Shown: one piece after another, positions 12,032-63,389 of the stretch
Layout: each line of letters begins with the position of its first letter
How positions within the stretch are numbered: position 1 is the first letter of the stretch
Made by a program: the position numbers and the translations under genes
From: Ulota crispa
Taxonomy: Eukaryota; Streptophyta; Bryopsida; Orthotrichales; Orthotrichaceae
Direction of reading: 5' to 3'
Assembly: GCA_963920765.1 (NCBI GenBank)
Contig: OY987247.1
Span: forward strand, 620,001-684,000
Length of the DNA stretch: 64,000 bases
The notes under the pieces: model-generated
What the model was told of the DNA's origin: nothing
The model's input: only the letters and a program-made list of their open reading frames with translations
The model's database searches: none

Positions 12032-12035
12032 CTGT

Positions 12036-21890: not shown

Positions 21891-22256
21891 TTAACCCCGA
21901 ACCGTCCAAGAGGACAAAAATTGTCCTTTCAATGCCAAAAACACATCGCGAGGGTGGAAAAAGATTTTTTTTCAATTTTTTTTTCTTGAAAGTGGTCAAA
22001 GAGATGTGCCACATCACTGAATGCCAAAAATAGCTACTTTCAATGCCTCCATATTTTTTAAAACATCAATTTGTAAAGAGATGTACAAGCTCCGTGCTGC
22101 CTTTTTGTGAGGGCAGGATACAGTATTGACTTTTCCTTCTTTTGAGGAGAATATGATCTCTCTTGGAGAGATGTCACAAGCTGTTCACTGCCCATGAACA
22201 ATGCACTCTCTCCTTGGTTTGAGCCATGGGTTCAGGGTCAGTCCTTTAAGGGTTAA
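21891..22256. mobile_element. TTAA-CCC miniature element, 358 bp
   Basis: TTAA at 21891-21894 precedes CCCCGAACCGTCC. The right end reads AGTCCTTTAAGGG followed by TTAA at 22253-22256. Terminal similarity is limited to CCC plus scattered bases. The first 60 bases resemble the element start at 58922, sharing a GAGGACAAA-AATTGTCC-like block, which supports a real family. Confidence 0.5.
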
Positions 22257-23224
22257 AGAGGAATTGATAATGTTTTGCAAAATGATTGCGTTCATAACAT
22301 TCAGTAGTGCTACCAGGCGTTGCCCTCCCTTGAGATGAAATGGTGTGGAATATTCCACACCCATCTTTAGCTATGGGACACTTGGTTGAATTTGTTAGAG
22401 AGTCTATGAAAGAGAGGCTTAGTTTAGTGATGTGGGGGCCAACCATGTCAGAAGAATTAAAATTAAAAAAAAAAGTTTGTGTCAAGATGAAGTTTGTGGA
22501 TGATGATACTTGAAGAGAGGGAAAGGCAGCCTCTCTTCAGACTACTGAATGTTATGTTGTTGCAAATGTATAGAGAGCACTTTACACTTTGCACCACGGC
22601 CCAACTTTGCAAGTCCAAATGAGATCCTGGCTTTCTTGGGTTTTAAAGTACAAAACAAAATATTGAAGGAAATTTTTAAAATTTGGAGATATATGGCCTT
22701 GAAGTTGGATTGTTGTGTTTGCTTGACCCAATTTTGTCAACGTTATGTCTCAACTTTTAGACATTGAAATCTCCAAAAAGTGTTACTATGTAGGTACTTT
22801 TAAGTGAACCCAAAGAAGGGAATCCTAAGGCAGGAGCACCCAATTGCAACACCAGCTGTTCTTGGATATCTAAAATTAAACCTAAAGTAGACAGATTTGC
22901 ACCCAAACAAGATATGAATGCACTCAAATCATACACGCAAGTTGACATAAGGGAATTGAAATTGCGTAGGTGGCAGTTTTTGATTGGGTGTGCATGCTCT
23001 TTTTGTTGTCATGACATGGTCTTGTTGTTGTCGTTTCTTTAGGGGTCTAGTGTCTACAATAGGTGATTCTACGGAGTTACCTTCAACAATTCATAATTTA
23101 TTCATACAATCTCAAAAAATTCTAAAAACAATTTTGCTTGAATATGTACCCATTTCCTAACATGCACATGCCATTGCATACTCAAAAGACCCTCTAGATT
23201 ACCACATCTAAGGTAAGTGTCACA

Positions 23225-23470
23225 TTTGGGTGCTTCTACCTTAAATTGTGAGCAAGGATTCATAAGTTGTGAGCCTAGATTTTTGTTAAAATATTAGATT
23301 TCACTTATAAATGTGTACATATGGCCTTATAATTGTGCATTATAAATGTTCATCTCCTAATAAAACTTGCTTTTTTTACTTATTCCATTGATTTTGAACT
23401 CAAAATTGGTTCCCACTCACAAAATCTTGACTCATTGCTCATGGGCTCATTGTTTTACGCTCACAAAACA
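23225..23470 (+). mobile_element. GTGAGC-ended miniature element, copy 1
   Basis: About 245 bp, matching 50498-50735 in the opposite orientation. Shared blocks include TTTCACTTATAAATGTGTAC, ATTATAAAYRTTCATCTC, CCCACTCACAAAATCTTG and repeated GTGAGC/GCTCAY words near both ends. No coding content. A MITE is the simplest reading. Confidence 0.7.
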
Positions 23471-24288
23471 ACGTTGTCCAACCCAAACGTAGAACTTGGG
23501 ACATAGTATGAACTGCCAAATCCCAAATTTGACCTTTCCACCGATTAGGTTTTTGAGGTTTTGATAGAACTTGGTACATAATACGGAAAGGATTGTTCCT
23601 AAGATAACTTAGGGTAAACTTATACAATTAGGTTCTTTTTATTTGTTGTTTCATATTTGTGACTATTCCAAGAAGTGATTGTGAATGGGATATCTTATAT
23701 TACATGCTTATTGACTACAAATAATTTATAGGGTGTAGGTTTTGCATTTTGATAAAGAAAAAAAAAATGGTAATGCAAGGCCATTGCATTTGGGAAAATT
23801 TTGAACTAGTTTTCTAAATAGGAAACTTGAGACAGTAGTGGAGCTTATTTTCTTTTTTAACTCATTATTATTTGGCAAACATTGAAATAGTAATTCAAAG
23901 AATTGCACATTATCAAGATCTAAACAAACAAATAGCACAAGATGATTAATTTTGTCTACAAAATCAACATCTTAATTGTCAAACTTAACGATGTGAAATA
24001 ATTTTTTATGTTAGTGATATAAGATTTCAGGAGTTTACCAACGAATCTTTCACCATGTGTTTCTAAAAAAATATTTTGCCACAAACACATTTAAGTATTT
24101 TGTAAGGACGTCAACGTTTATTTCAAAGTCCATAAAAAATTAAATGATATTTTTTAGCCCGAGCCTAACTCTACTTGTGGTGTTTACTTTTTTCCTCTTG
24201 AAACCAAATTTTGTAATGTTTTGATATACGGCTGTTTCAAAAAAATTACACAACTTACAATGTAACATCTACAACGGTTTTATTTTAA

Positions 24289-24521
24289 CCCCTAAAGGAC
24301 CACTCTTACGTATTACATAGTATATACGTTGCCATATAATTGGCATTTGCTACCAGTAAAAAGTTTTAATTTGGGATCTTGACTAGCTCACTAGAACCAC
24401 ATTGATCTATATTCTAACTTCTTTGTTGATCTCAAATGTAGTAAAGATGTGGATGCATTCCAAATACAAGAAAATACCAAATATTGTATTGGTTGCAAAG
24501 GGCTCCTTGATCCTTTCAGGG
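24289..24521 (+). mobile_element. TTAA-CCC miniature element, copy 1 of a 230-bp subfamily
   Basis: Flanked by TTAA on both sides (24285-24288 and 24522-24525). Ends are CCCCTAAAGGACCACTC and, on the minus strand, CCCTGAAAGGATCAAGG. The interior, including ATCTTGACTAGCTCACTAG and TTCTAACTTCTTTGTTGAT, is shared with 34488-34712, proving a dispersed family. Confidence 0.83.
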
Positions 24522-24587
24522 TTAATCTATGGTGGAACCTAATGGATTTGAGTATTTTGGACTAGTCAATAACTTTTGCATAAAAGT

Positions 24588-24652
24588 GTTTTTTGATATT
24601 GCACAAAAGTGTTTTTTGATATTGCACAAAAGTGTTTTTTGATATGGGAACC
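24588..24652 (+). repeat. 23-bp tandem repeat, three copies
   Basis: The unit AAAAGTGTTTTTTGATATTG plus CAC is repeated nearly exactly. It creates a spurious Lys/Cys-rich open frame on the minus strand. Confidence 0.85.
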
Positions 24653-24766
24653 AATAGATGTTTTGGGAATCAGAATAGCAAGATGAAAATCTCTTGTTGA
24701 ATGCAAAGTCCCATTGCACAATAAGCGTGTACACATAAAACTTGTAGTGTTTGGATGAATTTCCCT

Positions 24767-24869
24767 TTATTGAAATAGCCATGTACTCAATAATGATAAA
24801 ATACAATGTGATTGATTTTATTGAAATAGCCATGTACTCAATGATGATAAAATACAATGTGATTGATTT
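24767..24869 (+). repeat. 51-bp tandem duplication
   Basis: Two adjacent copies of a unit starting TATTGAAATAGCCATGTACT, differing at one base (AATAATG against AATGATG). The spurious minus-strand open frame there repeats the same peptide. Confidence 0.88.
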
Positions 24870-25542
24870 CACTCCTTGAGGTCTAAGTGGTGTTGGATAT
24901 TGGTAGGGAAATAATATTTTGGTGACATCACTAAAACCAACAATTTTATTTAACAATAACCCAATTATATATCCTTTAATACTTGTCGAATTAAACCACC
25001 TCCAACGGGTCTAAAGTCGAGCCCCCTTGCTCTTGCCCACCACACAAGGTCTATTTAATAAAACAATGTGATAACAACGGTGCTCAATACTGGAATGCTC
25101 ATATCTACCAGTCTTCTTCTTGCTAATTGATGACTCACTGGCAAACGACCACAAAAATGGTAGATTTAGATCATTTATGAACCATATACACACATTTGTT
25201 AAGGCAACACAAATATACAACTTCACTCAATTTTGGACTTGAATGAAGATCCAGATAACTTGTTTTGTTACTAAAAACAAAAAAACAATTTAGCACTCCT
25301 TGTTAATATTTATTCTTTTCAATAAATATGAATTAGAGTTATTTCTGTTCCAAAATTTAGCCAAAGATTGAACCATAACTTATAGCAAAGCTCATCCTTC
25401 AAAATGTCAACCTTACACACTATTTCTTAACTTTAGGGCCCTCACAATCAAGCTCATCTAGGTTAAGCCCTTTTACTTCATGATTAATTATTGGTTTAGA
25501 GAAAAATAAATAAACAATAGTATTGACAAAGCGAAGCAAAGA

Positions 25543-27355
25543 TTACGCACATGGTGTGTTTGCAGCACTATGGTTTCCACTTTTCACTAATGGAGCTAGC
25601 GGTCCACATCCAATCTACAAAATACAAAAAGAAACAACAACAATAACATTCTTATACAAGACTTAGTCATCTTCATAAAGCATACACATAAAAGCATTCA
25701 TTCCTACTCATTATTTCAAAATAAAACAGTAGTTTAACCCCTTAAGAATGTTGTTGTTTTGTATACGTTCTCTTGTGTTTTATATAGATAAGGCACTTGG
25801 GTAGAACATGAATTTCATTGCAGCTGTAAATTTCAAGCCAAGTCACAGATATACTACTAGTCAACTAGGATTTTTTGGAAAATTCCTGCATTTGTCATTA
25901 AATAATTTTTTCAAGTACTAAATGATCCTTGTATGAATACAACCTACATTGTTTATACAACAACATCCTCAAAGGGTTAAGGTAACACTACAAAAAATGT
26001 GTATAAACAACTGATTCAACAAATGTTCACATTGACTATTAAATGACTCAATGATAATTATTGTGAATATAAATGATCAATGGGGAATAATCATTTAAGA
26101 CGTGTTTTTCTTGTAGTGTAATAAGAAAAGAGCTTAAAAAGCATGTAAGGGACTTTTAAACTACTTACAATGAGACCGGGAGGGACAAGAAGAGTTTTAA
26201 TGCCATGAATGGCTTGAGATTGTTTGGTGCCAATATCAGGATTATTAATAGAAGAGTAGCCATTGATTTTGCTTCCACCCATGGTCACATTTAATCTTTT
26301 GCCATTAAATGCGGTGATGCTCATGTAATCTGCATTTTGGGCCAAATTCTTGAGTTGTTGGTAGGACAAAGTTTTTCCGGGAATTATATGGTATTGAAGC
26401 ACACTTATTGCCATAGCTTTGCTAACCATTGCCGAGTCCGAGAACAAACATGGGTATTTCTGTTTCCAGCAATTACAATACATGAAGTATTAAGGCGATT
26501 ACTTAATAAACAAAATCAATTCAACTAAACTCATGAATAATCCACATAAATCGGTGACCTACATTACAACACATTACAGCAACAGTAATAGAAAACTTAA
26601 ATTTATGGCATATTTAACTGCTTATGGACTATCCAAAGTCCATAAGCAATTACCTAAAAATTACCTCTAGTTGCAGAATTGCTATACATTTAATTGAACA
26701 TGAGTTGTTGGTGTAATTATGATTTATGCAAAACATTAGGATATTTTTTGATGTTTGACCAAAAAATTATGGATTTTCTAATGTTTTGCATATAGTTTCT
26801 ATTTTATTAATTATCCAAATCATTATTTAAGATCTCTACAAGTTCTTTATTTTGTTAAGTATTGCATGAAATATTTGGAGATACACGCATGCAAAATACG
26901 GGAAAATCTCTTCGTGGTTAGGGAAGTAGAAAACTCATAATTACATGAATAGTCTATAAGTATTTACATAAGCCATATTTATTACTATTTAATACAGCAT
27001 TTTGAAGAGAAACTTGATAAAGACGGTTTTTATTGGTTAAAAGTTACCATAGTAAGTTATATTTAGATGAGAAGATTAAGAAGCTGTAGTGTAAGCAATA
27101 AACCTTCACGGCTGAATTTTGTGGAGCAAAGAATGTAAATGTTGAGGACGGCCCTTGTGGAGTTGGCCATGATTGATTTAGAAGAGCTTGCAATACATTT
27201 CCACTTCCTTGATATTGCTTTGGTAGAATTGGAGGAGTGCCCGCCTTCCCTTCGACAGTTTTGGTCTCCATAAACAATACAACAAGTACCATGCTTTTCA
27301 CAAAAAATACAAAATCCCTAAGCATAGTTGCCATATTGCAAAGTTGAGCTCTCAA
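25543..27355 (-). CDS. fasciclin (FAS1) domain protein, three exons
   Basis: FAS1 domains mediate cell adhesion and are common in plant cell-wall/apoplast proteins. Exons on the minus strand: 27104-27355, 26169-26459, 25543-25614; introns are GT-AG and all junctions are phase 0, giving 204 residues. An N-terminal hydrophobic stretch (about residues 15-28) suggests secretion or membrane anchoring; Met8 or Met11 are alternative starts. The FAS1 signatures are visible: FTFFAPQNSAV at the end of exon 1 (H1 region), LQYHIIPGK in exon 2 (central YH motif) and AIHGIKTLLVPP (H2 region). There is only one domain, no arabinogalactan-type Pro/Ala-rich tail and no hydrophobic GPI signal at the C-terminus. 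Intron 2 carries two miniature transposons. Confidence 0.85.
25734..25980. mobile_element. TTAA-CCC miniature element in an intron of the fasciclin gene
   Basis: TTAA at 25734-25737 and 25977-25980. Ends CCCCTTAAGAATGTTGTTGT and, on the minus strand, CCCTTTGAGGATGTTGTTGT form an inverted repeat of nearly 30 bp. Interior 239 bp, non-coding, wholly within intron 2. Confidence 0.8.
25986..26118. mobile_element. CACTA miniature element in the same intron
   Basis: Starts CACTACAAAAAATGTG and ends so that the minus strand reads CACTACAAGAAAAACACG. It is flanked by TAA on both sides (25983-25985 and 26119-26121), the 3-bp duplication expected of CACTA/EnSpm elements. Only 133 bp long, so non-autonomous. 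It begins five bases after the TTAA-CCC element ends. Confidence 0.88.
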
Positions 27356-28404
27356 ATCAAAGTTAAGCCCTAATTAATGTCCTTGTGTAGGGCCTTGCAT
27401 TTGAAGTAACCACCAAATTTCAAGTTTTCAACATTTTAAATGTATGGAAAAGCACAAACATGTAGGTATTCCATATATGTTACTTGCAAATGTGAAAAAA
27501 TAAAAAATATTAGGTGTTTCTAAATACACTACTCAAGAGAAATTGTTATAACACAAGTGAAGGAATATATATAAATTAAAAGAACCATCCAACTTTAAAA
27601 AACAAAAAAAATAGTTAAGAGGAGAGGAACCACCAAACTACCTTAACAACCTTGTAATCCATTTTTTTTCTAACTCATTCATACGTTGCTTTTGTGCATT
27701 TGTATTTATTTTTCCTCACTTCATAGATTTGTGCATGTGGAACTTAATTGTCAATCCTCTATTATGTTGGTGAAATTAATATTTTGCATAAATTTGTGTG
27801 GGAGCTTGTTTTAAAGTATTCAATCATCGATCATTGATGTTGAGAATTCAAAAAAAAATTGTAAAATTGTTTGACAAAAAAAACCTTTGAAAGACATAAT
27901 TTGTTTTCAGTAGTCTTTGATATTTTCATATTGTAATCTCAAATAGCAATTAGATTTCAATGAGTGAATTGATGAACTCAAAAACTACAAAAGAAAATAT
28001 ATCTACAAGATAATCTTCAACTATTGATGGGTTTCAAACTACAATGTACGTATTTAGGCGGTTAAGGTAGTTATAACAATTAACTAAAGTAGTAAAGCTT
28101 ACAAAAATAGTTTAAAGATCTTGGAATATATTAGAGTACAGAAAGAACATAACATAAACTTCATTGTGTTGACCAACATTTTTTATGATACCAATTTTTA
28201 TGCAATAGTTGATGTTATTATTTATTCAAATATTGTGATTCTTTGTTGTAGTCACAAACCATGGATCCAAAGGAATTTAAGCAAATATTCAACGTAACGG
28301 ATTCAATTAATTTATATATTTGAGATTTCTGACACCAATATAAATCTTTACACTCTAGACCAAATTTGAAATGTTTAAAATTGAAGAGGGTTTTTATTGA
28401 TGAA
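27356..28404. other. AT-rich region upstream of the fasciclin gene
   Basis: No gene seen. A TATATATAAAT-like stretch near 27566-27577 could, on the minus strand, act as a TATA box about 210 bases before the fasciclin start codon. This is a guess from position only. Confidence 0.3.
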
Positions 28405-28616
28405 ATAGTGCATGACACTTGTAATCAACAATTTTTGAAATTTGAGCAGCCAATCTATCCCTTTGTCAAAAAAACGCTATCAAAATCCAAGACCAATATA
28501 ATGAAGCTTAGGTTTTGTTTCTCTTGCTAGTGACTATTGAGCTAATGGATACAAGTGTTGTGTTTTAGTATTTCTTGTTGTGAAAATAGTTGTTGATTAT
28601 AAGTGTCATGCACTAT
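28405..28616. mobile_element. TIR miniature element, 212 bp
   Basis: The start ATAGTGCATGACACTTGTAA is repeated in inverse at the end with one mismatch over 27 bp, continuing through TCAACAA. Non-coding interior. The superfamily is unassigned. Confidence 0.75.
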
Positions 28617-28639
28617 GGCTGATTAATTCTAACAAATAA

Positions 28640-29032
28640 TTGTGTAAATTAAAGAGGATTGAGGCTAGGTTTATGGAATTCTCCCACCAGAAAACGAGTG
28701 CTATTAATTGGCTACCAAAAGAATCAGAAGTGATAGAAGAAAGTAAAATCAAATACACTTGTGATCCATTGACACACAAAGTGTTATCCAATGTCAAAAA
28801 AGGAACTCTCCTTTGGGAATGGGTTCAAAAAAGACTTCGAGAAGGGCGGATGTATTTGTTGCAACCCCAAGACAAAATAAAATGTGGGCAGTGGAAACCA
28901 TACAAAGGAGTAAGGGATCCCACAAGAAAAATAGATCACAATTTTTTTCGACATGTGAATGTTAAAGACAAGGAATCTTTGCGAGAAATTATTCGAGATT
29001 CTACACGTGGATATGCTGAGCTTTACCAATGA
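28640..29032 (+). CDS. unrecognised 130-codon open frame
   Basis: I do not recognise this protein. Composition is ordinary and charged, with aromatic clusters (LLWEWVQKRLREG, QWKPYKGVRD, NFFRHVNVKDKESL), and it stands out from the low-complexity frames around it. An AG at 28653-28654 (TTAAAG) could be a splice acceptor, so this may be the last exon of a longer gene or a fragment carried by a transposon. It begins just after a 212-bp TIR element. Confidence 0.35.
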   Translation: MCKLKRIEARFMEFSHQKTSAINWLPKESEVIEESKIKYTCDPLTHKVLSNVKKGTLLWEWVQKRLREGRMYLLQPQDKIKCGQWKPYKGVRDPTRKIDHNFFRHVNVKDKESLREIIRDSTRGYAELYQ

Positions 29033-30614: not shown

Positions 30615-31260
30615 TTAACCCCTAGATGCCCAAGCAACTAGATTTGGGTAGCAACAAAACTTTGAAGATGAATAAAACTTTATCAAATCATTATTTTCAA
30701 TATAAATTTTTTCAATATAAGTTGGTTTTGAAGTCTATTTTCAACCTCAAAAGTCTGATTTTGAAAATGGAAATTGATGATTTTTCTACTCAAGAATTTG
30801 TACAAGGGTATCCATTGTAATCTTGAGTTTTTTAGTATTGGAAGATCTTGAAAATGAGCCTCAAATACACTAGAGCTTGGAGAAAAAATTACATTAGAAA
30901 TTCATTTAAAAAATATAAAGGAGTAGATTTTGAAAGCCATAAATTGATTAATATTAAACATGTAATGACCTTAAACCTCATATTTTTTTGGTAACCAACT
31001 TTTTAGATTTGGCATGTGAAATGAGGATTAGAAAACTATAATTTACTTTTGCAATTTTAACACCCTCATGTTCAAACATTACAATCTTTCAAACTATAAG
31101 TGATATTCTTGTGTTTTCTTTTCCCATGTAATCTCTAACATGTTTAGTTTAAATTTGTTACAATTGAAAAAACTTGATGAAATTTTTGAAAGATTGGATG
31201 ATTGTTTGGTTTTATGAAAATTCCAAGAAGCTCAAATAGGACTTGGGCATTTAGGGTTAA
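30615..31260. mobile_element. TTAA-CCC element, 638 bp
   Basis: TTAA at 30615-30618 and 31257-31260. Ends CCCCTAGATGCCCAAGC and, on the minus strand, CCCTAAATGCCCAAGTCC agree at about 14 of 16 positions. The same terminal subfamily (CTAAATGCCCA) appears at 60796. No recognisable coding sequence. Confidence 0.75.
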
Positions 31261-34483: not shown

Positions 34484-34716
34484 TTAACCCTTAAAGGACT
34501 GCTCTACATATTAAGTAGTAAATACCTTGCCGTATAACTAACATTTGCTACCAATAAAAGTTTTAATTTGAGATCTTGACTAGCTCACTAGAACCGCATT
34601 GATCTATATTCTAACTTCTTTGTTGATTTCAAATGTAGTAAAGGTGTGAATTTCAAATACAAAAAAATACTAAATATTATTGGCCGCAAAGGGCTCCTCA
34701 GTCCTTTAAAACTTAA
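34484..34716 (+). mobile_element. TTAA-CCC miniature element, copy 2 of the 230-bp subfamily
   Basis: TTAA at 34484-34487 and 34713-34716; start CCCTTAAAGGACTGCTC. The interior aligns along its length with 24289-24521 (same orientation), including ATCTTGACTAGCTCACTAG and AAAGGGCTCCT near the right end. The right terminus has decayed to AAACTTAA. Confidence 0.83.
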
Positions 34717-38417: not shown

Positions 38418-39367
38418 TTAACCTCTAAGGGCCCAAACAACATTTTTGACAACAAGGCAATTTTGGGCAAGCTAGTACTTATAGAATAATAATTAATCTT
38501 CACAAAAAACTAGAAGATGTGTATCCAAGGAGTAGCTTCCCAATGCAACAATTTTCAAATCATTTTGATTTGGAGAAAAAATAGTTATGGTGGAATATTT
38601 TCTTATGTTTGCTTGAGTGGCAATACATGCAAAAAATTTTATATTGCAACTCAAATTTTGGGATCTTGCCTAAAGGTTGAGGGGCAAAGATATTTCCTTG
38701 TTAGATCTTACTTGATCTCATTCCATGAAGGAGCCATGAAGGCAATTGTTTTTTCTTACTGCCCTTTACTTCACTTTTGTTAGAAGTGGCCCTATATTGA
38801 TCAAGTTTGTCAAAGCCATAGTGTTTGACCAATTTCATTTTTGTTCCCTTCCTCTAAAGCTAACAAAAAATCAAACATTGGTTGTTCACATTTGAAGAAT
38901 TTATTGTAAGTGGAAGTAAAACAATGGTTGAAAAAACGGCTTTGTATGAGAATTTTCTTGAAGCTAGTTTTGTATTCTTTTTTTACCATGTATTCCCCAA
39001 TTTAAAATATTATGGAACTTTTTAAACATATGTCTAGCTTTATTATAAAAGTAAATCTGAAAAGCCACAATCAAAATATTGATATTTATTTGTGCTAATA
39101 CCTCCCCAAATTAGAGTTGCCTAGAATTTGATTGCCCCAAAAAAGAACCATTTTTCCCTTCAAACCTTATAATCTCACAATTTATGTGGTAAATGGCTTT
39201 CCTCTTTTTACCACATCATAATAAAGTAGTCTTCTATTAGATCCTATGGTAAATTGTACCAAGATTTCATTTTCATTTTCAGTTTTTTTTTTTTTTCCCC
39301 TTTGCTGTCAAACGACTCATTTTGAGTGTTTTTTGGTGAAACATAGTCGAAGGCGTTTAGGGGTTAA
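38418..39367. mobile_element. TTAA-CCC element, 942 bp, diverged ends
   Basis: TTAA at 38418-38421 and 39364-39367. Left end CCTCTAAGGGCCCAAAC; right end on the minus strand CCCCTAAACGCCTTCGAC. Terminal agreement is only partial, so the pairing is less sure than for the others. An open frame at 38517-38783 has no recognised domain. Confidence 0.5.
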
Positions 39368-45851: not shown

Positions 45852-46909
<1,058 letters not shown>

Positions 46910-50379: not shown

Positions 50380-50400
50380 TTAACCCCTAAAGGCCCAAGC
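50380..50400 (+). repeat. unpaired TTAA-CCC element end
   Basis: TTAA-CCCCTAAAGGCCC at the expected left-end orientation. I could not find its partner end; nested insertion or deletion is likely. A similar orphan is at 51154 (TTAA-CCCCTAAGCGCTC). Confidence 0.45.
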
Positions 50401-50497
50401 CATTTTTTTTGTGAAAGTCACTAAAAATTGCCACTTTGGGGAATGAGTAGAAAAGTAGGAAATAAAGTTTGTTTTGCAAATCCAACTAGAGGTAAGC

Positions 50498-50735: not shown

Positions 50736-52920
50736 CATCCCCATTTTTTTCATGTAGCAGACCAAGTTAGGTACGTGTGGGAGAATTTTCAAATCAATTG
50801 GAACTATACAACACATGGGAAAAAATAGTAAATAAAAAGAAGTAGAGAATGAGTCAAATCAATACATTGTTAGGAATTTAATTGTGGAAGCAAAACATGC
50901 AAATCCCAACGGTCATAACGTTGTAATAAACAATTTAATTCCTTGGGTTTAGATATTTTTCCAAAATATTGAAAATTGTGGAAAATAAAGGACTTCAAAG
51001 TTTATTTTAGTGTAGAGGATCCGTAATTGCCTACAAACTAAAACATCTCATAACTTTCATCTCATTGATTGAAAGTGATTAATTCAAAGCTTCCCACTTA
51101 TAAAAAAATCTATAGAACCAATTTTAGATTTTTATTTTAAAAAAATACAACTTTTAACCCCTAAGCGCTCAAGCGACCATTTTCTAGTCGCTGCTCGTTT
51201 TTTGCAGGCTGCCCAAGAAAAAAAAAATTGTAATAGAAAATCAAGTCTACTTTTCAACTTAACTTGAATCATGTCAATCCAAGTTAAACTCCTCCAAGGA
51301 GAATTTTTCAAAACCAAACACTTCAATATTTGCTAGTGTTGTAGAATTTACTATTTCGGGAAATTAATGATGTTCCTTCCTTTCAAAAGATAGCATTTTT
51401 TAAGTTTAGGATAGAATGTCTATTTTTAACCAATCAAACCAAATTTTGAAATCTATGAGTAAAATTTGTAATTTTGGTGAATATTAAATGGTAAATGCTT
51501 CTAAATTCATTAAATAAGAGTACAAAGCTCTTTTTGGATATTTGACCATGTGGATAATTGCTAAACATCATGATTCTTATTTTCTCTTTTGAAACAAACT
51601 TCATTAAAGTTACAAGAGTTTTTTTTAAATGCATTTATGTTTTGCCCTTACCCCCTCGGGCATTGGATTAAACAAGTTTTGAGGCTGCTCAGATTGCCCT
51701 CCCTCCCCGAGTTGCAAAAATTCTTGCATAACTTCTTTGTCAAATGTCAAAATGAAGAAAAAATTAGATGCCCGCATAGGTCTTGGAATTCCTCACCTTT
51801 AGTAAAAGTTTCAAAAAATCATACAAAACAGTTTAGCTATAGGTACATGCCCAAAATCCATTTATCCCCGAATATTGTTGTTATGAGTCATCCTAGTGCA
51901 ACATATTAACTCTTGTGAACTTAGAAAGTTTAACCCCTGAGCGCCCAGCTCATGATCCTTGTTTTGTTGGGTCGGTTGACCTTGTGTCACTAAAAACCAT
52001 GTGGCATGTGTGAAAATGGGATCCACGGGCATGGACCCTTGAAAGGGGTGCTTTACTTGAGGTTGGTTACTTTTTGAGAATTTGGGGAAGTTTGACCGTG
52101 GGGTTTACATTATTAAAACGGTAAAAGGGTGTTGAAAATTTGCTTCTAAGGCCAATTTTTTGACATGTAATACGGTTTTGGGTCTAATTGAGTCATTTCT
52201 AGTGGGAATTAGGCTCTGAAATTTTTAGCCGTGGTTCTGGGAGGGGTATGGGTGTACCCTCCAATTTTCAAATTTTTTGACCCACATCTACACTCCTAAA
52301 ATGGCTAAGGGAAACATATAAGTGAAAAACAAACCCATCGGGTTTAGACTAAACCCACATACCTCCCTTGGCCACAAAGTGTTCCAAAAGCCACTTTTCA
52401 AAATTACCCACCCATCCCCACAAACAAACCGCCATCATAACCTAGCAAAACCACCAACGACGTTAGTGTGCAAGGCTCGAGCAGCAAGCTTGTGAGCCTT
52501 GAGCGTGAATACCATGGGCTTGTAAGCCTTGAACTTTAAAACTTTCAAAAATCGTAAATTAACTTCATATTTCTTAAAAAAATTAGTAAAATTCAAACAA
52601 AATTTTATATTTATAGAAATTTTGAAGACCTATGACCATGGACAAGTTTCTATACCTACAACCGTGGAAATGTGAAATATTTTATTAAAAGTCAATTTGG
52701 TGATAATATTGTATAAAGAATAATTTCAAAGTTACAAAGTGAGTTATGAGCTTCATGTACAACCATTCAAAAGATGGATCACTGAATAATTGAAATATAA
52801 GAAAATGAGATAATATAATTTACAAACACATGTAAAAAAGAAGGCCTTCCTCTTTAGGCTCATTCTAAGCTAAACTAGAAGCATCCTTATTACTGTGGTA
52901 AAATACAAAATGTGACTATT

Positions 52921-53240
52921 TAGATAAGGGATAATTTCATTGATACCCCTAAAGTTTGCAATACTTTCATAGATACCCCTGCTTTTCTAGAAATACCACA
53001 AATACCCTTGGATCAAAAACATTAGGCATTTTTTTTTGTTGTGCATGCCACTTCCCTCCTTCCTTTGTAAGCATGCATAACAAGGAAAAAGTAGTCTGCG
53101 CACAAAGGAAGAAGGGAAGTGGCATGCATAACAAATCAAACACCTAAATTTTTTGTTCCAAGGGTATTTGTGATGTTTATGTAAAAGAAGGGGTATCTAT
53201 GAAAATATTGCAAACTTCAAGGGTATTTATGAATTTTTCC
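52921..53240. mobile_element. foldback miniature element, copy 2
   Basis: Matches 44373-44680 throughout: TTTGCAATACTTTCATAGAT near the start, GTTGTGCATGCC and GGCATGCATAAC in the central arms, and ATGAAAATATTGCAAACTTC near the end. The arms pair with each other. Confidence 0.9.
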
Positions 53241-54189: not shown

Positions 54190-56700
54190 AATAGTGAAAT
54201 GGAGGTGCCTCAGCAAACCACCAAGAACCTAAACGTCCCTGACTAAGCTCCTAGAGATATGTTTGGCCACCTTCAAATTTCTTTAATGTGTGATTGACCA
54301 CCTCCAAAATTGCTAAAATGAATGCCTTTTGTGATGTACTTCATTTGCTACTTAAGTTGCAAAAATGGCCAGGTGCACCTCTAGAAGCTTAGTTGTCTAA
54401 ATCTAAGCACCTAGGGGTGTGCCAACCATCTCCAAAGTGCACAAAAAAATGCCCTTTATCTTCATTAATTGTTGTGGTTGAAAAAATTGGGGCGATTAGA
54501 CACACCCCAAGATCTCATTCTTGGAATAATGACCTCTTGAGGTATGCCCAGCCCTCTCCAAAGTGCACAAATAACCTCCATTTATCATTATTTTTTTGAT
54601 GGTGGAAAACTTGGGGGTGGCTTGGCACAGCCCTAGGAGCTAATTAGTAGTCCAAGAATGAGCTCCTAAGGGTGTCCCCAACCATCTCCAAAATGCACAA
54701 ATATATATCTTATATTATTTATTGGTTTATGGTTGCAAAATTGGAGGCGGTTGGGCATTCCCCTAGGAGCACCTTTGTCCCAAAATGTGCGCCTATGGGT
54801 GTGCATGACCACCCCCTAGGGGTGTACTCAACCACAACCATTTTGCAAAAATTCATGAAAAAACATAATAGAATTCATGAAATTTTGGAAAACAGTTGCA
54901 ATTGGGCACACCCTTGGGAGCACATTTGTGGCCAAAGGTGCTCCTAGGGGTGTGCCTAACTGCAACCATTTTGCAAAAAATTCATGACTTTTATTGTGTT
55001 TTGTCACAATTTCTGCAAAATGGTTGCAGTTGGGCACACCCCTAGGAGCACCTTTGTCCATGAATGTGCTTACAAGGGTGTGCCCAATTGCAACCATTTT
55101 GCAAAAATTAATAAATTATATTGTATTTTTTCATGAATTTTTGCAAAATGGTGGCAATTGGGCACACTCATGGGAGCACATTCTTCCAAGAAGGTGCTCC
55201 TAGGGGTGTGCCCAACTGCAACCATTTTGCAAAAATTCATGAAAAAAATTAATATAATTCATGACTTTTTGGAAAATGGTTGCAATTGGGCACACCCTTG
55301 GGAGCACATTCATGGACAAAGGTGCTCCTAGGGGTGTGCCTAACAACAACCATTTTGCAGAAATTGTGACAGAACATAATAAAAGTCATGAATTTTTTGC
55401 AAAATGGTTGTAGTTAGGCACACCCATAGGAGCACACTCTTCCAAGCTGGTGCTCCTAGGGGTGTGCCCAACTACAACCAATTTGTAAAAATTCATGAAA
55501 AATTATAATGAAATTCAAGAATTTTTGCAAAATGGATGCAATTGGGCACACCCTTGGGAGCACATTCGGGGACGAAGGTGCTCCTAGGGGTGTGCCTCAC
55601 TGCAACCATTTTGGACAAATTCATAAAAAAATAAAAAGAACTCATGAATTCTTGCAAATTGGTTGCATTTGGGCACACCCCTAGAAGCACCTTCTTGGAA
55701 GAATGTGCTCCCATGGGTGTGCCCAACTGCCACCATTTTGCAAAACTTCATGAAAAAATACAATATAATTCACGATATTTTGCAGAATGGTTGCAATTGG
55801 ACACACCCATGGGAGCACATGAAAAAATACATTGTAATTCATGAATTTTTGCAAAATGGTTGCAATTGGGCACACCCTTGGAAGCACATTTGTGAACAAA
55901 GGTGCTCCTACGAGTGTACTTAACTGCAACCATTTTGCAAAAATTCATGAAAATAATTAAATTCATGAACTTTTGCAAAATGTACGCAGCTGGGCACACC
56001 CCTGGGAGCACCTTTGTGGACAATGGTGCTCCTAGGGGTGTACCTAACTGCAACCATTTTGCAAAAATTCATGAAAAAATATAAAAAGTCTTGAACTTTT
56101 GCAACATGTTTGCAATTGGGCACACCCATGGGATCACATTTGTGGACAAAGGTGCTCCTAGGGGTGTGCCTAGCTGCAAACATTTTGCAGAAGTTCAAGA
56201 CTTTTTATATTTTTTCATGAATTTTTGCAAAATGGTTGCAGTTAGGTACACCCCTAGGAACACCTTTGTCCACGAATGTGCTCCCATGGGTGTGCCCAAC
56301 TGCAACCATTTTGCAAAAATTCATGAATTATATTATATTTTCTCATGAATTTGTGCAAATTAGGGGCGGTTGGGCACGCCCACAAGACCTCAATCTTCCA
56401 AGAATGAGCTCTTGGAGGTGTGCCCAACCGCCCCTTAAGTGCACAAATATATGTCCTCTATTTTTTATTTTTTTATGGTTGAAAACTTGGGAGTGGCTAG
56501 GCACATTTCCAAGAGCTTAGTTGTCCTCAAATAAGCTCCTGGGGGTATGCCTAACCATCCTCAAATTTCACAAATGAATGCTTTATATCATCTTCTTTTC
56601 TGAAATTTGATGGTTGAAAATTGGGGGTCACTAGGCGCACCTTCGGGAGCCTAGGTATCAATGCATGAGCTCTGTGGATTGCATCCAGCCACCCTCTAGG
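54190..56700. repeat. satellite of hairpin units, period about 127 bp
   Basis: The core, about 54830-56350, has twelve units. Each has a left half (GGTTGCAATTGGGCACACCC then GGGAGCAC) and an inverted right half (GTGCTCCTAGGGGTGTGCC then AACTGCAACC), so each can form a stem of about 30 bp. Units are joined by AT-rich linkers containing TTCATGAATTTTTGCAAAA, themselves partly palindromic. Left halves start near 54898, 55022, 55149, 55277, 55404, 55533, 55660, 55789 (right half missing), 55858, 55984, 56110 and 56236. More diverged units flank the core on both sides with a similar period. It is non-coding; reading through units gives repetitive open frames on both strands. Confidence 0.92.
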
Positions 56701-57080
56701 CTTGATTTTATAATATTTGATTTCATTGGTAGATGGTTGATTTAGACCACTAGAAGCACTCTGCAACGTCTATAGTTTTTGTCACTTTTTAGAAACACAA
56801 ATGTCTTTGTTTTATCACACTTTTCCTCACGTAATTCAATCTTTTTTTAAGTAGAGTCCTTCAAGGATTAAAAAGAAAGTGTACTTTGGACTGTTGTCAT
56901 GTTTTTAATAGCAATAGAGCATAGAGCCATATTGTCTTGCTACTTCTAAACAATTATAATGTCATGTACTTGCTCAAATGTATGTGATTTAGGATACGGT
57001 GTTAGGCTAGATTACAATCCCTTGTTGTTTTGTTTTATGATAATTAGTATTACATGATCTGAAGTGTTTGTCGTATTTTA

Positions 57081-57241
57081 GATATATGATTCTTTTACTT
57101 CATCATTGAACTCTTTTGTTTTGGATTCACAACTACCTATTGAAGCTACTGCAAATAGTTTTGTAGGTGTGTCATTTACTAAGAAGCATTTGCAAGACTA
57201 TGGCACAATTGTTGTTGTTTATTCGTATTTTGCTGATTCTA
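57081..57241 (+). CDS. possible internal exon of an unknown gene
   Basis: Between a TTTTAG acceptor and an AAG-GTTAGT donor-like site the frame is open and of ordinary composition (SQLPIEATANSF, SFTKKHLQDYG). Another open piece follows at about 57815-58020 (LELEENEDVFVVVL, EEPSSIVTIEDPNDIHVL) and ends near a GTAAGT. I do not recognise either; they may belong to one decayed, transposon-borne gene. Confidence 0.25.
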
Positions 57242-58229
57242 AGGTTAGTATAACAAGGCTTTGCAAAGCTTATTGTATGTTGATAATGAAAGAGTAGATG
57301 AGCACAAGTTGACTACATTTGACTTTATCTTTTGATACCTCTTGCAACATGAGTCTTTTAGATTTTTCCTTCTTAGATTTGTTGTTTTTATTTTGTTTTT
57401 TTGTGTATATTAATTTGTTAGTTGCATGGCTGGTTTTTTGGACACAAAAACTTGGATTTATCCTCTTGGTGAAGGATCTGAACGGGGTACAAAAATGCAA
57501 TTTCTCTTTCAAAAACAAAGAGACAATGGAGAAAGTAGACTTAGACATTGCATGAGATTACAATTTCATGAACTTCACATGGATAAACAATTTAGCCATG
57601 CATGACATTAGACCATGGCTCGAAGGACCATGGGTGAAAGATCTAAGGTTCATTCAGCTTCTCATTGAAGCCATATTGCTTGAAAGTGATGTTATTTTGG
57701 ATTGCACAACCTCAATCTAGTAGGATCACTAGTTGTATTGTTATATTTTTTATATCTTGCTTTTTGTTTTCAACTTATTATTGCTTAATGGTTTCTATTT
57801 TTTTTACAAGTGCAGCGGTTATAGCTTGTTGTAGTATAGACCATCATATTTTGGAATTAGAGGAAAATGAAGATGTTTTTGTTGTAGTATTAAGATCCAT
57901 GATGCAGACCTTGTCAACCATAGTAGATAAGGAGGAACCATCTTCAATAGTGACTATAGAAGATCCAAATGATATCCATGTATTATCTCAAACATTTGCA
58001 CAAAATTCTAATGTGATAAGTAAGTCTTCATCTTTCATCATTCTATTAAAATTTAGTGTATTACCTTATGTTTGAATTGACTTTAATATATTGAATGTAT
58101 TTAAATAGTAATTGTGGATTGATGACAATGACAAATTCTCTAACTAACACTATTAAGGACTTTTGAATTAGCCTAGATAAGAATTTTTCACTATGTTTGT
58201 ATGCACAACAAATGGCCTCAGTGTTTGAA

Positions 58230-58336
58230 GCTTATGATTCTTTAAACCTAAATGTTGATGTAATACTTATACTTTGAACAGAAGCTTATGATTCTTTAAA
58301 CCTAGATGTTGTTATAATAATTATACTTTGAACAGC
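58230..58336 (+). repeat. 53-bp tandem duplication
   Basis: Two adjacent copies of GCTTATGATTCTTTAAACCT followed by a short AT-rich tail and ATACTTTGAACAG, with a few differences. Confidence 0.82.
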
Positions 58337-58917
58337 CATCTTTGAATTCATTGGTGGAATGACTTTTGACATAGAATAGTTTTTAGACATACCTAGTACT
58401 GATGACTCATCCAATAAGTCCACTAAGACTTAGACATGTGAGACTATAATTCATAAAGTGGTCCGTGTGTGATTTTTTTATTATCTATACATTTTTGTGT
58501 TTTATGGCTACATATTTCTTTTGCATTTGTTAGTTTAATTAATTATTATATGCTTTATATAAGTCTACAACAAATTTGAAAAATTTGATTAAGATGTTCA
58601 ATTTGTTTCATACATTCCACAAGTTCCCTTACAATATGACCTACTTATTATTTCAAATTTGTACAAAAGTTCCACGGTCATAGGTATTTTACTCCAAAAT
58701 TTACTTAAAAGGTTTCCTGCTCATAGGCTCACAAGTTCACATGCTCATGCTCACAAGCTTGCCTACTAGCAACCTTGGCAAACCACTCCATCCCCTAACA
58801 CCAGGCACAGCTGGTACAAGTGGTACTCTCTTAAACATGGTACAACTAAATCCAGCTGAATAAAGAGCTATTGAAAATTGTGAGGGGCAATATTACCGCC
58901 CCTAGAGAGCTCAAGGG

Positions 58918-59289
58918 TTAACCCTCAAATGCCGAGAAGGACAAAGAATGTCCTCTTGCTATGAAAAAACGATCTATATGAAAGAAAAAAACCATTTTTC
59001 ATTTGATTTTTTTGCAAAAGTGATCATAAACACATGGTCCATCATGGTAGGCAAAAAACTACCTCATTAGATGCACTCATATTTTTAAATAACCCAAGTT
59101 GTGAGAAGATTCAAAAACATGATGTTAGGTCCCAAGTTGCCCTTCTTGCAATTTTCATGAAAGCACCATGCACTATTGACTTTTGCAACTTTTATTAACA
59201 ATATTACTAGTAGATATAGTCAGAATCACTATAGAAAACACTATAGAAGTTACAATGGGGCAAGCCACAATTATGTGCCTGGCGCTTGA
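58918..59289 (+). mobile_element. TTAA-CCC element start, right end unclear
   Basis: TTAA 58918-58921 is shared by the right end of the preceding element (GGG at 58915-58917) and this left end (CCCTCAAATGCCGAG). Its first 60 bases resemble those of the element at 21895. The right side seems to be interrupted by the element at 59290. Confidence 0.5.
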
Positions 59290-60244
59290 CCCCTAAAGGA
59301 CCAAGGGTGTTTTTTGAGAAAAGTCTCAGAAACTGCCAACTTTTAGTGCATTGCCTAGAATTGAAATTAAAAACCTTTTTTCTCAATTTCAACCGTATAA
59401 AAGTGTGCAAAGCAAATAAAATAATATGTACAAAAAAATTCAGCCCATTTGACCATGTGGATTGTAAGACTATAATGTTTGAAGTGAGAAAAACTACTAT
59501 TTTTATTCTTGCAAAACAAGGTCAGCAAACTTTGACCCTTCCTAGAGTAAATTTTTTATTTTACACAAATTTGAGCTTTTTGACCATTCATAAGTATATG
59601 ATGTTAGGTTCACTCTCAAAAAAAATTCAGATGTAAAAATACAATCTAGCTTATGCAAAATCATCCTCCAATGCAAAGAGGTTAAGCAAATTGGCAATAC
59701 ATTAGTCATTCTTTCATGATTTCTTGTGCAATGAGAAAGTTTTTTATTTGAAATTTGAATGGTGAAAATTAGAGATAAACTTTTGGAACATATGAAAAAA
59801 AATTCAAGATCTTTGGACTTATAGATTGAAAGTTAACATGGCTTGAAGTTAGAGGATTTTTTTTTTCTTGAAATTGCCGGAACATAGTTGACAAAGTTTG
59901 ACTCCCTTCAAAATGTGATGTGAGAGCTCAATTTACTTTTTTTTTTGACAATTATACACCATGTTTTTTTAGTAACATACTTGCCAAATTTCAAAAATTG
60001 ATGAAAGTCTTAGCATAAGATTCTCCAAAGATGCCCAAATTGCCCAAGCTGCCCAATTTCTTTTGGGTAACATAACTCTTGAACTAGGCATCCGATTAGG
60101 GAAAAAACTACATTTCCTACTAGGGAATACTTATTTGCACCTTGTGTAACAGTTTTGAGAAAATCAAATAAAATTTGACTCCATATGACCCTACCCAAGT
60201 TCTCAAGTGGCTATTAAACAGCCACTTGGTCTTGTAGGGGTTAA
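59286..60244. mobile_element. TTAA-CCC element, 951 bp
   Basis: Ends CCCCTAAAGGACCAAG (59290) and, on the minus strand, CCCCTACAAGACCAAG (60240); flanked by TTGA (59286-59289) and TTAA (60241-60244). Internal sequence is related, in reverse, to the loop of the big palindrome (5280-6165). No recognised coding sequence; open frames at 59286-59636 and 60010-60198 lack known motifs. Confidence 0.75.
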
Positions 60245-62475
60245 GGATTAAATGGAAAAATACATACTTTGTGGTTTAATATTGTAGCATTTTCTTGCAG
60301 TTTAGAATTTTAGCCTTGGTCCTTTAATCATTCATCCTTTAGTGAATGAAAAAGGCTGGAAAATTGTTTACATTTTGAGAGAATGTCAAGTTTTTACAAA
60401 GATTATGGATTTGTTAAACTCCAAGAATGAAATCAATAATAGGTTTTTAGCATCTTTGTGTTTTTATTCAAAAATATTAACTAGTTGTTGAAGTTTACAA
60501 AGTTGTTAAGAGCAAAAGTATATGTAAAGTACATCCACAATCATATTTTGGCCAAATTGTAAGTTGTTAGTAAAGGGATAATTTTTTGGTTGTCAAGGAA
60601 AATGTATAATCTCTCAAAATTTTGGTTAAAACCATCCTAAAATTGACTACTTTGTTATACAAGATAAGTTCAATTTGAGCAAAGATGTGGAAATTGTAGT
60701 CACAAGATATGTTTGTAAAAATTTGAAAATAGATAAATCATCTAAAATTAACAAGATTTAGACTTATACTTTGCAAAATAAAAAACCTTGATTAACCCCT
60801 AAATGCCCATGGTGCTAAATTCCGGTGTTAAAAACACCACATTTTGGTGTTGTGGGCATTTAGGGGTTAGTTCTTTTGCTATTGAATGAAGAAGTTGGTA
60901 GCAATCATTACAAACTTCTAGAAAACTACTTTAATTGGTCATGCTCCAATAAGTTTACAATAATAAACAAATAACTTCAAAAGTTGAAAACCAAGAAAAT
61001 AAGATTTTTGAAAACTTTAGTTTGGAAAATATGATATTGACACTTAATGTGTTATTATTATTACTATTATTTTTGTTATTATTATAAATATTATTATTAT
61101 TGGTGTTTAGTCAACCTTCTATGTGATTGATTTAACCAAATTTTAATATCTATTAATATCTATAAAAGAACAAATCATTTTATTATATTTCTGTTTCATC
61201 AAGTTTTTTGCATTTTTCTATTTCTTATTAAAATTAATTGAAAATGAAGTTTCAAATAGTGATTTTCTGCAGTGTTAATTTTAAAGATTTTTTTTTGGTT
61301 TTTCAAAAACTATCAAATTAATTTGAACAATTTTTACTGTAATATTTAGCCAAAAATAATCCACATAAAATTGGACCTCAACTGTTTAAGTTTCACAGAT
61401 TCTCAAAAATGAACAAAAAAAACTAAACTAAACTAAATTTGTAATATTTAGCATTTGCAATTGTAATTGTTAAAGACTTTTCCAAAATCCTTTAAATTAG
61501 TATCAGAAAAAAAAAAAAAATCTATTCTTGAACAGATTTCAAGCAAAATCAAGATATTTAAACTAGGAGTTTGAATGAGAAGATATTGTTTTGGTCTAAT
61601 TTAGTTTTTTTATAAGTTATACTAATCTTTTGAGGTGATAAAGTTTGAGATTTGTCAAAATTTATAAACAAATAATTTTTATCTATTGTTTGGATATAAA
61701 ATAAAAGCTTGTTTTTGCATGAATTTTAGTATCAACTAAGCAACTCATATATGGTAAGTAGGACTATTTGAGGTTAAATCTTCTTAGTAGATGACTTTGC
61801 GCCCTTTAATGATTTATTGTATCTAGTTAAAAGCAAAAATAAAACAATTTAAAAACAAATATATAAAGATGGAAAAGTAGTTTGTGTTCTATTTAACTAT
61901 TTACTTATTTACCTATTTGATTATAATCCAAGGCACCAAAATTAGAGGTTTTTGTTTATGTGAATTTCCTTTTATAGAACGAGGTTTATTTGTAGCAAAT
62001 AAAGAAATACATAAAAATTAACAAAAATTGTTTAATGATAATAAAATTTATTATTTACTTGATGGAATGTCCAATACCAAAATAATTTGGTCCATGCTAC
62101 TTGTATTAAAAAATCTTTGCAATATATTATTTCAAAAAATCTTTGTTTGTTAGGTATCAATTGTGTTTTGCAAGGGATTTTCAAAGTTAGGTCAACACAC
62201 CCTTGTAACATGAAAGTTTTATCAAGAAATTCCTACTACTTACCAAGTGATAAAATAGCTTGATATCTTACACTCAAGAACCTAATCATATTGTTTCACT
62301 TACCCTCACTTATTGTAGCTAAGGATATAAGAACTTGAATTGCAAGCTCGTTGTCTAATGACATTAAGTTCTAGTTCCACAACAAAATTTGTTTTATCAA
62401 ACAAAAGTTGTGCCAAACCATGCACATCTTTATTGAAAAGATTATTAAAATTTTGAATCTCTTGATGAACCATAT
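60245..62475. other. AT-rich DNA without genes
   Basis: Strongly AT-rich, including an ATT-trinucleotide-rich stretch near 61045-61100. Apart from the 71-bp element nothing is recognised. Confidence 0.55.
60792..60870. mobile_element. minimal TTAA-CCC element, 71 bp
   Basis: CCCCTAAATGCCCA starts at 60796 and recurs in inverse at the end (14 bp perfect), with TTAA on the left and TTAG on the right. Inside are GGTGTT / AACACC words, so the whole element is a hairpin. Confidence 0.75.
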
Positions 62476-63389
62476 TTAACCCTTTAACGACCACACCCAT
62501 TTTCATAGGATCCACTGAAACAAGGGCTGTAAGCTTAGATTTGGAATTGACTCTAATATGGACCCATTTTCAAGAATCCAACCATACAAATGGGAAGTAC
62601 ACCTTGTTTATTGTAGAGCACCAAAATTTTAGCTAGATCTACCGTTGGAGGTGAAATATTATAATGATTGAGTGAGCCGTACGCGGAAAATCTCTTGTGT
62701 TTCATTCTTGTTTAGTTTTGAATGTTAACCTTTCATGCAAGTTTTGATTAAGAAGAGCCTTACATTTCTAGAAAGCAGGGTTTCCCACCTTTCCAACAAG
62801 ACTAGTTTCACACAAAATAGACAAAAACAGCAATCACAAGGTGTAGCTAAGTGCACAAAAAGGGTAAAAAAACCCACTTTCTTTGCTACCCTAAAATGGT
62901 TCTACAATAAATTTGATAATTATTCTAGAAAATCCAATTGGTGAAAACATTCAAGAATAGGCCTTAAATGTAGGATGACAAATTTTAAAGCCAAAATGAC
63001 AACAACATTTCAATAGATTTTCAAATACTAAAATTATACTACTATCGTATATGAAAACAATACAAGCGTATTTCTTAAGCAATTTGAAATTTTTTAGAAA
63101 TGTGCAATTGAAATTTGACATTCTTCTTGCATACTTGATGTATTTTGTTGTTGCTTGGATCCATCTTTGACAAAAAATGGATAACTATTTTGAAGCCATG
63201 CCGTATAAACACCATTATTTGTCAACTAACATACCCAATTGCATTGTTGTTTTTTTAGATGAATGCAAAATTCTTGTGATCACATGCATACTTCAAGACC
63301 AAATTCCAAATTATTAAGCGATTTCAACCTATAGGCCAAAAACCACTCCCAGTGACCAAAATATGGTTGCGTGGTCCTTAAGGGGTTAA
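62476..63389. mobile_element. TTAA-CCC element, 906 bp
   Basis: TTAA at 62476-62479 and 63386-63389. Ends CCCTTTAACGACCAC and, on the minus strand, CCCCTTAAGGACCAC. The GACC word matches the ends of the 1.77-kb element at 12040. The short open frame 62735-62944 has no recognised motif. Confidence 0.75.

What the first reader, a model, noticed from the sequence alone, without database searches (positions are those of the whole stretch)
21891..63389. A large family of TTAA-CCC elements with piggyBac-like termini in a plant
At least ten elements in this window (12036, 21891, 24285, 25734, 30615, 34484, 38418, 59286, 60792, 62476) share TTAA or near-TTAA flanks and CCC(C/T)T ends, with subterminal words that differ: AAAGGACC, AAATGCCCA, AACGACC, AAGAATGTTG. 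TTAA duplication and CCC ends are hallmarks of piggyBac, a superfamily little described in land plants. The sub-types suggest several transposases with different binding sites, or rapid divergence of subterminal sites.
Basis: partly seen in the sequence, partly recalled or inferred. Interest (0 to 1): 0.75.

Follow-up and report, generated by a model that had tools for sequence, protein, structure and literature searches.

The report
piggyBac transposon families in a moss
This plant genome (probably a moss) is crowded with piggyBac-type jumping DNA, a kind studied mainly in animals: thousands of short passenger elements, several families of the enzyme that moves them, and a mirror-image recognition site at the same place as in the moth original.

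Summary
In detail: ten elements with both ends were delimited at the ten listed places. The commonest end word tested (TTAACCCCTAAAGGNCC) occurs 10,998 times in the 275-Mb genome, its reversed control never. The genome has at least 120 piggyBac-transposase matches. Of 13 copies read with wide flanks, 7 lie between TTAA-CCC ends, 4 show one end, 2 none. One 5.7-kb transposase copy has two related empty sites with a single TTAA. Transposase groups differ in tip words, though two distant groups have nearly the same one. New here: in the seven transposase-upstream ends, 29 of 35 positions form a palindrome centred on base 25, where the moth enzyme's C-terminal domain binds; downstream ends show 16 of 50, near background. 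Letters differ between families; place and symmetry do not. Mechanism: cut-and-paste at TTAA by several piggyBac transposases that also carry deleted passengers, down to 79 bp; the chemistry is inferred. The host is a green plant, moss-like, unnamed. In the papers seen, piggyBac in land plants is only a minor table entry or a list mention. Known kind; notable host, abundance and end layout.

The parts
12036..13809 (.). 1.77-kb non-autonomous element, tips CCCTTAAACGACC both sides, TGAA/TTAA; palindrome at bp 25 in its right end (5 of 5 pairs)
   Evidence: the other inverted-repeat arm continues across the site for about 16 bases with CTAA in place
21891..22256 (.). 366-bp MITE, TTAA both sides; palindrome at bp 25 in its left end (5 of 5)
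24285..24525 (.). 241-bp MITE, TTAA both sides; same family as 34484
25734..25980 (.). 247-bp MITE with AAGAATGTTG / GAGGATGTTG tips, TTAA both sides; rare (7 exact end words in the genome)
30615..31260 (.). 646-bp MITE of the ATGCCCA type; its left end matches the transposase-upstream end of L044 at 27 of 30 bases
34484..34716 (.). 233-bp MITE, second copy of the 24285 family (95% over 96 bases inside); right tip decayed, TTAA kept
38418..39367 (.). 950-bp MITE, TTAA both sides, left tip CCT
50380..50413 (+). left end only; 26 of 30 bases like the end beside transposase copy L041 (type D)
51154..51190 (+). left end only; palindrome at bp 25 (4 of 5)
51930..51963 (+). left end only
58885..58954 (.). 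two ends sharing one TTAA (right end to 58921, left end from 58918); palindrome at bp 25 in the left end from 58918 (5 of 5)
59286..60244 (.). 959-bp copy of the high-copy MITE955 family, 85% identical to L002:1501-2455; palindrome at bp 25 in its right end (4 of 5)
60792..60870 (.). 79-bp mini-element, little more than the two ends; palindrome at bp 25 in its right end (5 of 5)
62476..63389 (.). 914-bp MITE, left tip of the ACGACC type, TTAA both sides; palindrome at bp 25 in its right end (4 of 5)

Best explanation
These are piggyBac-superfamily cut-and-paste DNA transposons. Several old, coexisting families in this plant genome each encode a DDD transposase that recognises its own tips (mostly CCC[C/T]T plus a family word at about bp 6-13, and on the upstream end a palindrome at bp 18-32). 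The transposase cuts the element out and inserts it into TTAA, duplicating TTAA. The elements in the window are non-autonomous passengers (79 bp to 1.8 kb) moved in trans. SHOWN HERE: ends, TTAA, empty sites, transposase genes inside such ends, catalytic residues, past selection on transposase frames, family tips, the asymmetric palindrome. [quoted passage not shown]
For: (1) PF13843 gives 120 matches here and 0 in 14 control genomes; L039's frame matches solved chains 9c0f (piggyBat, 1.7e-16) and 6x67 (3e-13; T. ni piggyBac by recall). (2) Of 13 copies with wide flanks 7 have both ends, 4 one, 2 none. L048 and L053, on different contigs, align at 90.5% over 5,029 bases that start and stop at the TTAA ends. 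(3) Catalytic columns: D in 27, 22 (7 of the other 8 are N) and 26 of 30; neighbouring Asp 25 of 30. (4) Two empty sites of the L039 element have one TTAA. (5) TTAA precedes 4,746 of 5,668 CCCCTAAAGGNCCAAG words. (6) Differences by codon position A 59/40/126, C 75/44/180, D 77/76/153. (7) Palindrome at bp 25 in 7 upstream ends: 29 of 35 pairs, other centres mean 9.4, max 17; 0 of 20,000 shuffles; 10 downstream ends 16 of 50.
Against: No transposase match in the window. MITE955 has no transposase-bearing copy with both its ends: L043 shares its terminal 77 and 106 bases but gave no piggyBac match; L041, with a transposase, shares one end (77% over 60 bases). Two of 13 copies show no such ends. 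In L046, L055 and L056 the ends were paired by tip word; the automatic inverted-repeat test did not find them. Cysteine-rich tails were seen by eye but five gave no Pfam match above cut-off. Empty sites: of 17 joined flanks, 1 clean TTAA, 1 CCAA, 1 short CTAA; the search scored only 40 of 4,031 candidates. 110 of 120 transposase rows contain stops; present activity is not shown.
Confidence: 0.95

Rival explanations
1. The high-copy MITEs belong to another TTAA-specific superfamily (for example Kolobok or Sola3, named from recall) and only look like piggyBac, while the piggyBac copies are a separate matter.
For: MITE955 has no both-ended transposase-bearing parent; TTAA targeting is not unique to piggyBac (recall).
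Against: Transposase-bearing piggyBac copies share CCC tips, family words and the bp-25 palindrome with MITEs; the 30615 MITE matches the type A parent end at 27 of 30; no other transposase domain was found in the frames scanned, which is not an exhaustive scan.
Confidence: 0.04
2. The piggyBac copies are contamination from an animal or another organism in the assembly.
For: piggyBac is mainly reported from animals, fungi and protists in the papers seen.
Against: Matches lie on C1 to C11; contig C1 carries end words, transposases and chlorophyll a/b-binding genes alike; the L039 element sits in a repeat whose empty copies are on other contigs.
Confidence: 0.01
3. The bp-25 palindrome is a by-product of hairpin-prone sequence or of how ends were chosen, not a binding site.
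For: It was first noticed by eye in window ends and L048; the L046 end was placed at 1195 rather than 1187 after its palindrome had been listed; in the looser set of 69 clusters bp 25 is not the highest mean (0.308, other centres up to 0.337); single downstream ends reach 3 of 5 pairs, as does the upstream end of L044.
Against: Exact centre 25.0 with different letters per family; 29 of 35 against at most 17 at any other centre, 0 of 20,000 shuffles; leaving L046 out it is still 24 of 30; it coincides with bp 17-33 bound by the CRD dimer in the published structure (PMC7351741 passages).
Confidence: 0.1

Closest known systems
Trichoplusia ni piggyBac (PDB 6x67, 6x68; organism by recall)
   Same: TTAA target, DDD transposase (E 3e-13), asymmetric ends with a palindromic repeat at bp 17-33 of one end (PMC7351741 passages)
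   Different: Here 5.0-5.7-kb elements, against 2.1-3.5 kb for intact beetle elements (PMC12732532 passages); large MITE load; plant host
piggyBat (PDB 9c0f)
   Same: Best-scoring solved transposase (E 1.7e-16)
   Different: Host; the plant copies fall into several deeply split groups
PiggyBac entries in plant repeat annotation (Ceratopteris fern: 1,230 elements, 122,417 bp; PMC6890710)
   Same: Same superfamily label in a land plant
   Different: A line of a repeat table in the passages seen; here ends, parents, empty sites and over 10,000 end words
Plant MITEs such as Tourist and Stowaway
   Same: Short passengers without a transposase in high copy
   Different: TTAA target and piggyBac-type ends instead of TAA/TTA (Tourist) or TA (Stowaway), as listed in PMC10004981 (passage)

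Membership tests
piggyBac superfamily | TTAA target-site duplication | tested here: met
   Single TTAA in 2 empty sites of a transposase-bearing element; TTAA precedes 4,746 of 5,668 end words. Against: 7 empty sites of a MITE read CCAA and a short one CTAA.
piggyBac superfamily | Short inverted ends beginning CCC | tested here: met
   7 of 13 transposase copies with both ends, 4 with one, 2 with none; inverted-repeat test positive for L039, L044, L048, L053, ends of L046, L055, L056 paired by tip word
piggyBac superfamily | DDE_Tnp_1_7 (PF13843) transposase inside the element | tested here: met
   120 matches; inside both-ended elements L039, L044, L046, L048, L053, L055, L056
piggyBac superfamily | Three catalytic aspartates | tested here: met
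   D in 27, 22 and 26 of 30 aligned copies; matching to D268/D346/D447 is by motif context
piggyBac superfamily | C-terminal cysteine-rich domain | tested here: inconclusive
   CxxC...CxxC...C...C...H seen by eye in tails of L039, L045, L048, L053, L054, L056; five tails gave no Pfam match above cut-off
piggyBac superfamily | Asymmetric ends with a palindromic internal repeat at bp 17-33 of one end (as in T. ni piggyBac) | tested here: met
   29 of 35 pairs at centre 25.0 in 7 upstream ends; 16 of 50 in 10 downstream ends, mean of all centres 13.0
piggyBac superfamily | Seamless (footprint-free) excision | not testable with these tools
   Needs excision products
Kolobok / Sola3 (other TTAA families, named from recall) | Their own transposase inside the same ends | tested here: inconclusive
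   The Pfam matches among the frames scanned between such ends were DDE_Tnp_1_7 only; no model of these families was used and not all frames were scanned

The most novel reading that the evidence does not exclude
A plant genome has held several long-separated piggyBac families that evolved side by side. In each, the tip word and a palindrome at a fixed place (bp 25, upstream end only) have changed letters while keeping position and symmetry. This would be a natural series of transposase-end recognition codes, preserved since before plants and animals parted or brought in by transfer, and exploited by passengers as small as 79 bp.
Probability: 0.5. Interest if true: 0.75.

Novelty: new member of a known kind. 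Interest (0 to 1): 0.55.

Why it matters
[quoted passage not shown] A moss-like plant with several transposase families and over 10,000 exact end words would widen its natural range, offer plant-adapted transposases and very small ends, and give a natural experiment on how these transposases read their ends: the layout of the CRD site is kept although its letters are not.

Tried and rejected
Looking for TTAA-CCC ends within 1.5 kb of 30 transposase matches found almost none: the elements are about 5 kb and the loci were too short; wider loci solved it. The loose end pattern (14 of 17) is weak against the reversed control. L043:2379-7469 was considered as the parent of MITE955; it shares both termini, but no piggyBac match and no Pfam match in the one of its 8 open frames of 75 aa or more that was sent. 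A palindrome near bp 53 in downstream ends, expected from recall of the moth right end, is not clear: centre 52.5 ranks sixth. L039's 430-aa second frame was not found in the other loci apart from L012, which is the same place. Some paper hits were the word 'piggybacking'. Bouallegue et al. 2017 (name by recall) and the Hypnales genome paper are not held. No structure prediction was made.
Full report
WHAT WAS CHECKED. The window is G000:C6:620001-684000 of an unnamed 274.8-Mb assembly in 157 contigs. Seven of ten have exact TTAA on both sides; three differ by one base on one side. With a strict 17-position end pattern (at least 16 matches, CCC required) the window has 16 ends, the reversed window 1, and 40 Markov copies a mean of 0.025 and at most 1. 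With a loose cut (14) the reversed window gives 23 against 26, so only the strict pattern is evidence.

HOW COMMON. Exact end words in the genome, both strands, with reversed-pattern controls of 0 in every case: TTAACCCCTAAAGGNCC 10,998; TTAACCCCTAAATGCCCA 3,235; TTAACCCTTWAACGACCA 449; TTAACCCYTCATYGCC 400; TTAACCCCTTAAGAATGTTG 7. Of 5,668 places with CCCCTAAAGGNCCAAG, 4,746 are preceded by TTAA; in the window TTAA occurs 470 times in 64,000 bases. Some places pair at fixed spacings: a family of about 955 bp (window 59286-60244; L002 1501-2455); ATGCCCA pairs about 640-650 bp apart, and some exactly 79 bp (C1:241512-241590, 531562-531640 and 3362792-3362870 in the 100 places listed; C1:23161415-23161493 and C2:20950426-20950504, B type, in those listed). 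Only the first 100 places of each pattern are listed, so no share is given.

THE TRANSPOSASE. PF13843 (DDE_Tnp_1_7) has 120 matches in the genome (a lower bound; 116 of 528 candidates scored) and none in 14 control genomes; 10 of the 120 rows have no stop inside. None was found in the window. L039's frame matches piggyBat (1.7e-16) and 6x67 (3e-13) among solved chains. In 30 aligned copies the three catalytic columns are D in 27, 22 and 26; 12 of the 15 exceptions are N, as C-to-T decay would give. Cysteine-histidine tails are visible by eye in several copies, but Pfam did not recognise the five sent.

TRANSPOSASE AND ENDS BELONG TOGETHER. Thirteen copies were read with wide flanks, chosen for few stops or as relatives of each other. 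Both ends were found in 7 (L039, L044, L046, L048, L053, L055, L056), one in 4 (L040, L041, L054, L057), none in 2 (L045, L047). L039 has TTAACCCCTAAATGCCTAA at 1767 and, inverted and identical over 19 bases, at 7512, around the transposase. Its relative L044 aligns with it through the transposase (78% over 1,811 bases) and at both ends. L048 and L053, on different contigs, align at 90.5% over 5,029 bases, from TTAA end to TTAA end and one base further. In L046, L055 and L056 the ends were paired by tip word; the automatic inverted-repeat test did not pick them.

EMPTY SITES. Flanks of 17 elements were joined with one tetranucleotide and searched; the search scored 40 of 4,031 candidates. For the transposase-bearing L039 element, both empty copies have a single TTAA. 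For the MITE in L002, seven empty copies are uninterrupted but read CCAA where the filled site has TTAA; a target copy that had changed to TTAA before insertion would explain it. For window 12036-13809 the opposite arm of the inverted repeat continues across the site with CTAA, and 13 of the next 16 bases agree. The other 14 gave no usable empty site in the listed rows.

FAMILIES AND TIP WORDS. The transposase tree of 33 copies separates groups with these tips: A CCCCTAAATGCCYAAG; B CCCCTCATYGCC and CCCTTCATTGCC; C CCCCAAAASGWCC (left), CCCATAACGACC and CCCCAGAACATCC (right); D CCCCTAAAGGAC (one end); E CCCTTTARSGACC (right) and CCCATTAAGGATC (left, L046); F CCCTTCACCGCC (one end of one copy, L014). 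The window MITE at 30615 matches the upstream end of L044 at 27 of 30 bases, 50380 matches L041 at 26 of 30, and 59286 matches L044's downstream end at 24 of 30; the other 21 window ends compared match none of these at more than 23. The A, C and D pairs differ mostly at third codon positions (59/40/126, 75/44/180, 77/76/153), so those transposases were under selection while the families split. The B pair (42/37/36, transitions 102 to 13) looks like free decay since it was copied.

THE PALINDROME. I noticed inverted repeats near bp 15-35 in window ends and in L048 (note) and then tested for them. Over 50 end clusters the best of all centres was bp 25.0, narrowly (0.363; next 0.353 at 88.0; mean 0.274, sd 0.028). 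With a looser set of 69 clusters bp 25 has mean 0.308, above shuffles (10 of 2,000 reach it) but below the best other centre (0.337); 6 of 69 reach 6 of 8 pairs there, which 0 of 2,000 shuffles and no other centre from 32 to 110 (at most 4) do. Splitting ends by the direction of the transposase made it plain. In the 7 upstream ends (families A, B, C, E) 29 of 35 positions pair at centre 25.0 (arms bp 18-22 and 28-32; 3 to 5 of 5 in each end). Other centres average 9.4 with a maximum of 17, and 0 of 20,000 shuffles reach it; with one end per family it is 17 of 20, again 0 of 20,000. The 10 downstream ends show 16 of 50 against a mean of 13.0, with single ends up to 3 of 5. Two cautions: part of these ends prompted the idea, and L046's tip was placed at 1195 rather than 1187 after its palindrome had been listed; without L046 it is 24 of 30. 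In the window, 7 of 25 ends have at least 4 of 5 pairs there, against 197 of 9,115 arbitrary places; 5 of the 10 paired elements have it in one end, none in both. The published piggyBac structure has a CRD dimer on a palindromic repeat at bp 17-33 of one end only, catalytic-domain contacts at bp 2-6 and DDBD contacts at bp 9-14 (passages of PMC7351741). The elements here keep that layout with other letters.

HOST. Chlorophyll a/b-binding genes are many (56 matches). For one such protein the best single-domain solved chains are 8htu and 7xqp (456 bits each); the next single-domain chain scores 432, while two long 9vfj chains score 519 and 442 as wholes. 7XQP is from the moss Physcomitrium patens (PMC13066549 passage); that 8htu is too is recall. 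The host is a green plant and most likely a moss, from this one gene; it is unnamed.

LITERATURE. No listed title is a study of native piggyBac elements in mosses; one listed Physcomitrella paper uses the word (PMC5505980, listing only). [quoted passage not shown] PMC6890710 (passages) lists 1,230 PiggyBac elements, 122,417 bp, in the fern Ceratopteris. PMC10794571 and PMC10004981 (passages) name PiggyBac among plant or angiosperm superfamilies. Subscription papers, Repbase and preprints outside PMC were not searched.

VERDICT. The elements are piggyBac superfamily: new families and a notable host and abundance, but a known kind. Mechanism in brief: transposase dimers bring two ends together by tip word and upstream palindrome, cut the element out at TTAA and insert it at another TTAA; passengers that keep little more than the ends, down to 79 bp, are carried along. 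The chemistry is inferred from the moth enzyme and was not tested here.

Noticed in passing
window 922-12040: Inverted repeat with 3,905-base arms, 100% complementary, 3.3 kb between them; a 229-aa frame present in both arms has a weak DDE_3 match (E 0.0029, below cut-off; one arm scanned), and the middle holds 1.95-kb direct repeats and two 72% relatives of MITE955. A recent palindromic duplication or an assembly artefact.
   Followed up: partly
window 54366-56600: Array of about 128-base units, at least 11 copies, with inverted copies inside.
   Followed up: no
window 26091-26483: Fasciclin-domain frame (6e-07), minus strand, beside the 25734 MITE.
   Followed up: no
window 58918-58921; L043 2379-2382; L039 8926-8929; L046 6847-6850; L056 6122-6125: Pairs of elements abut and share one TTAA (or a one-base variant), as if elements insert into the TTAA flank of others.
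   Followed up: no
L039 5802-7091 (minus): 430-aa glutamine/glutamate-rich frame in a transposase-bearing element, not found in the related loci; possibly captured host sequence.
   Followed up: partly
L040 2429-3490, L046 2019-2651: Short protein similarity (47% over 64 aa) upstream of the transposase in group E copies, perhaps a conserved 5' exon.
   Followed up: partly
L047 (C1:1177500-1186000), L045: piggyBac-domain genes with no stop in the matched pieces and no recognised ends; candidates for domesticated genes or for elements whose ends were missed.
   Followed up: no
G000:C4:21391382-21771811: Cluster of chlorophyll a/b-binding protein genes with the same or nearly the same score.
   Followed up: no
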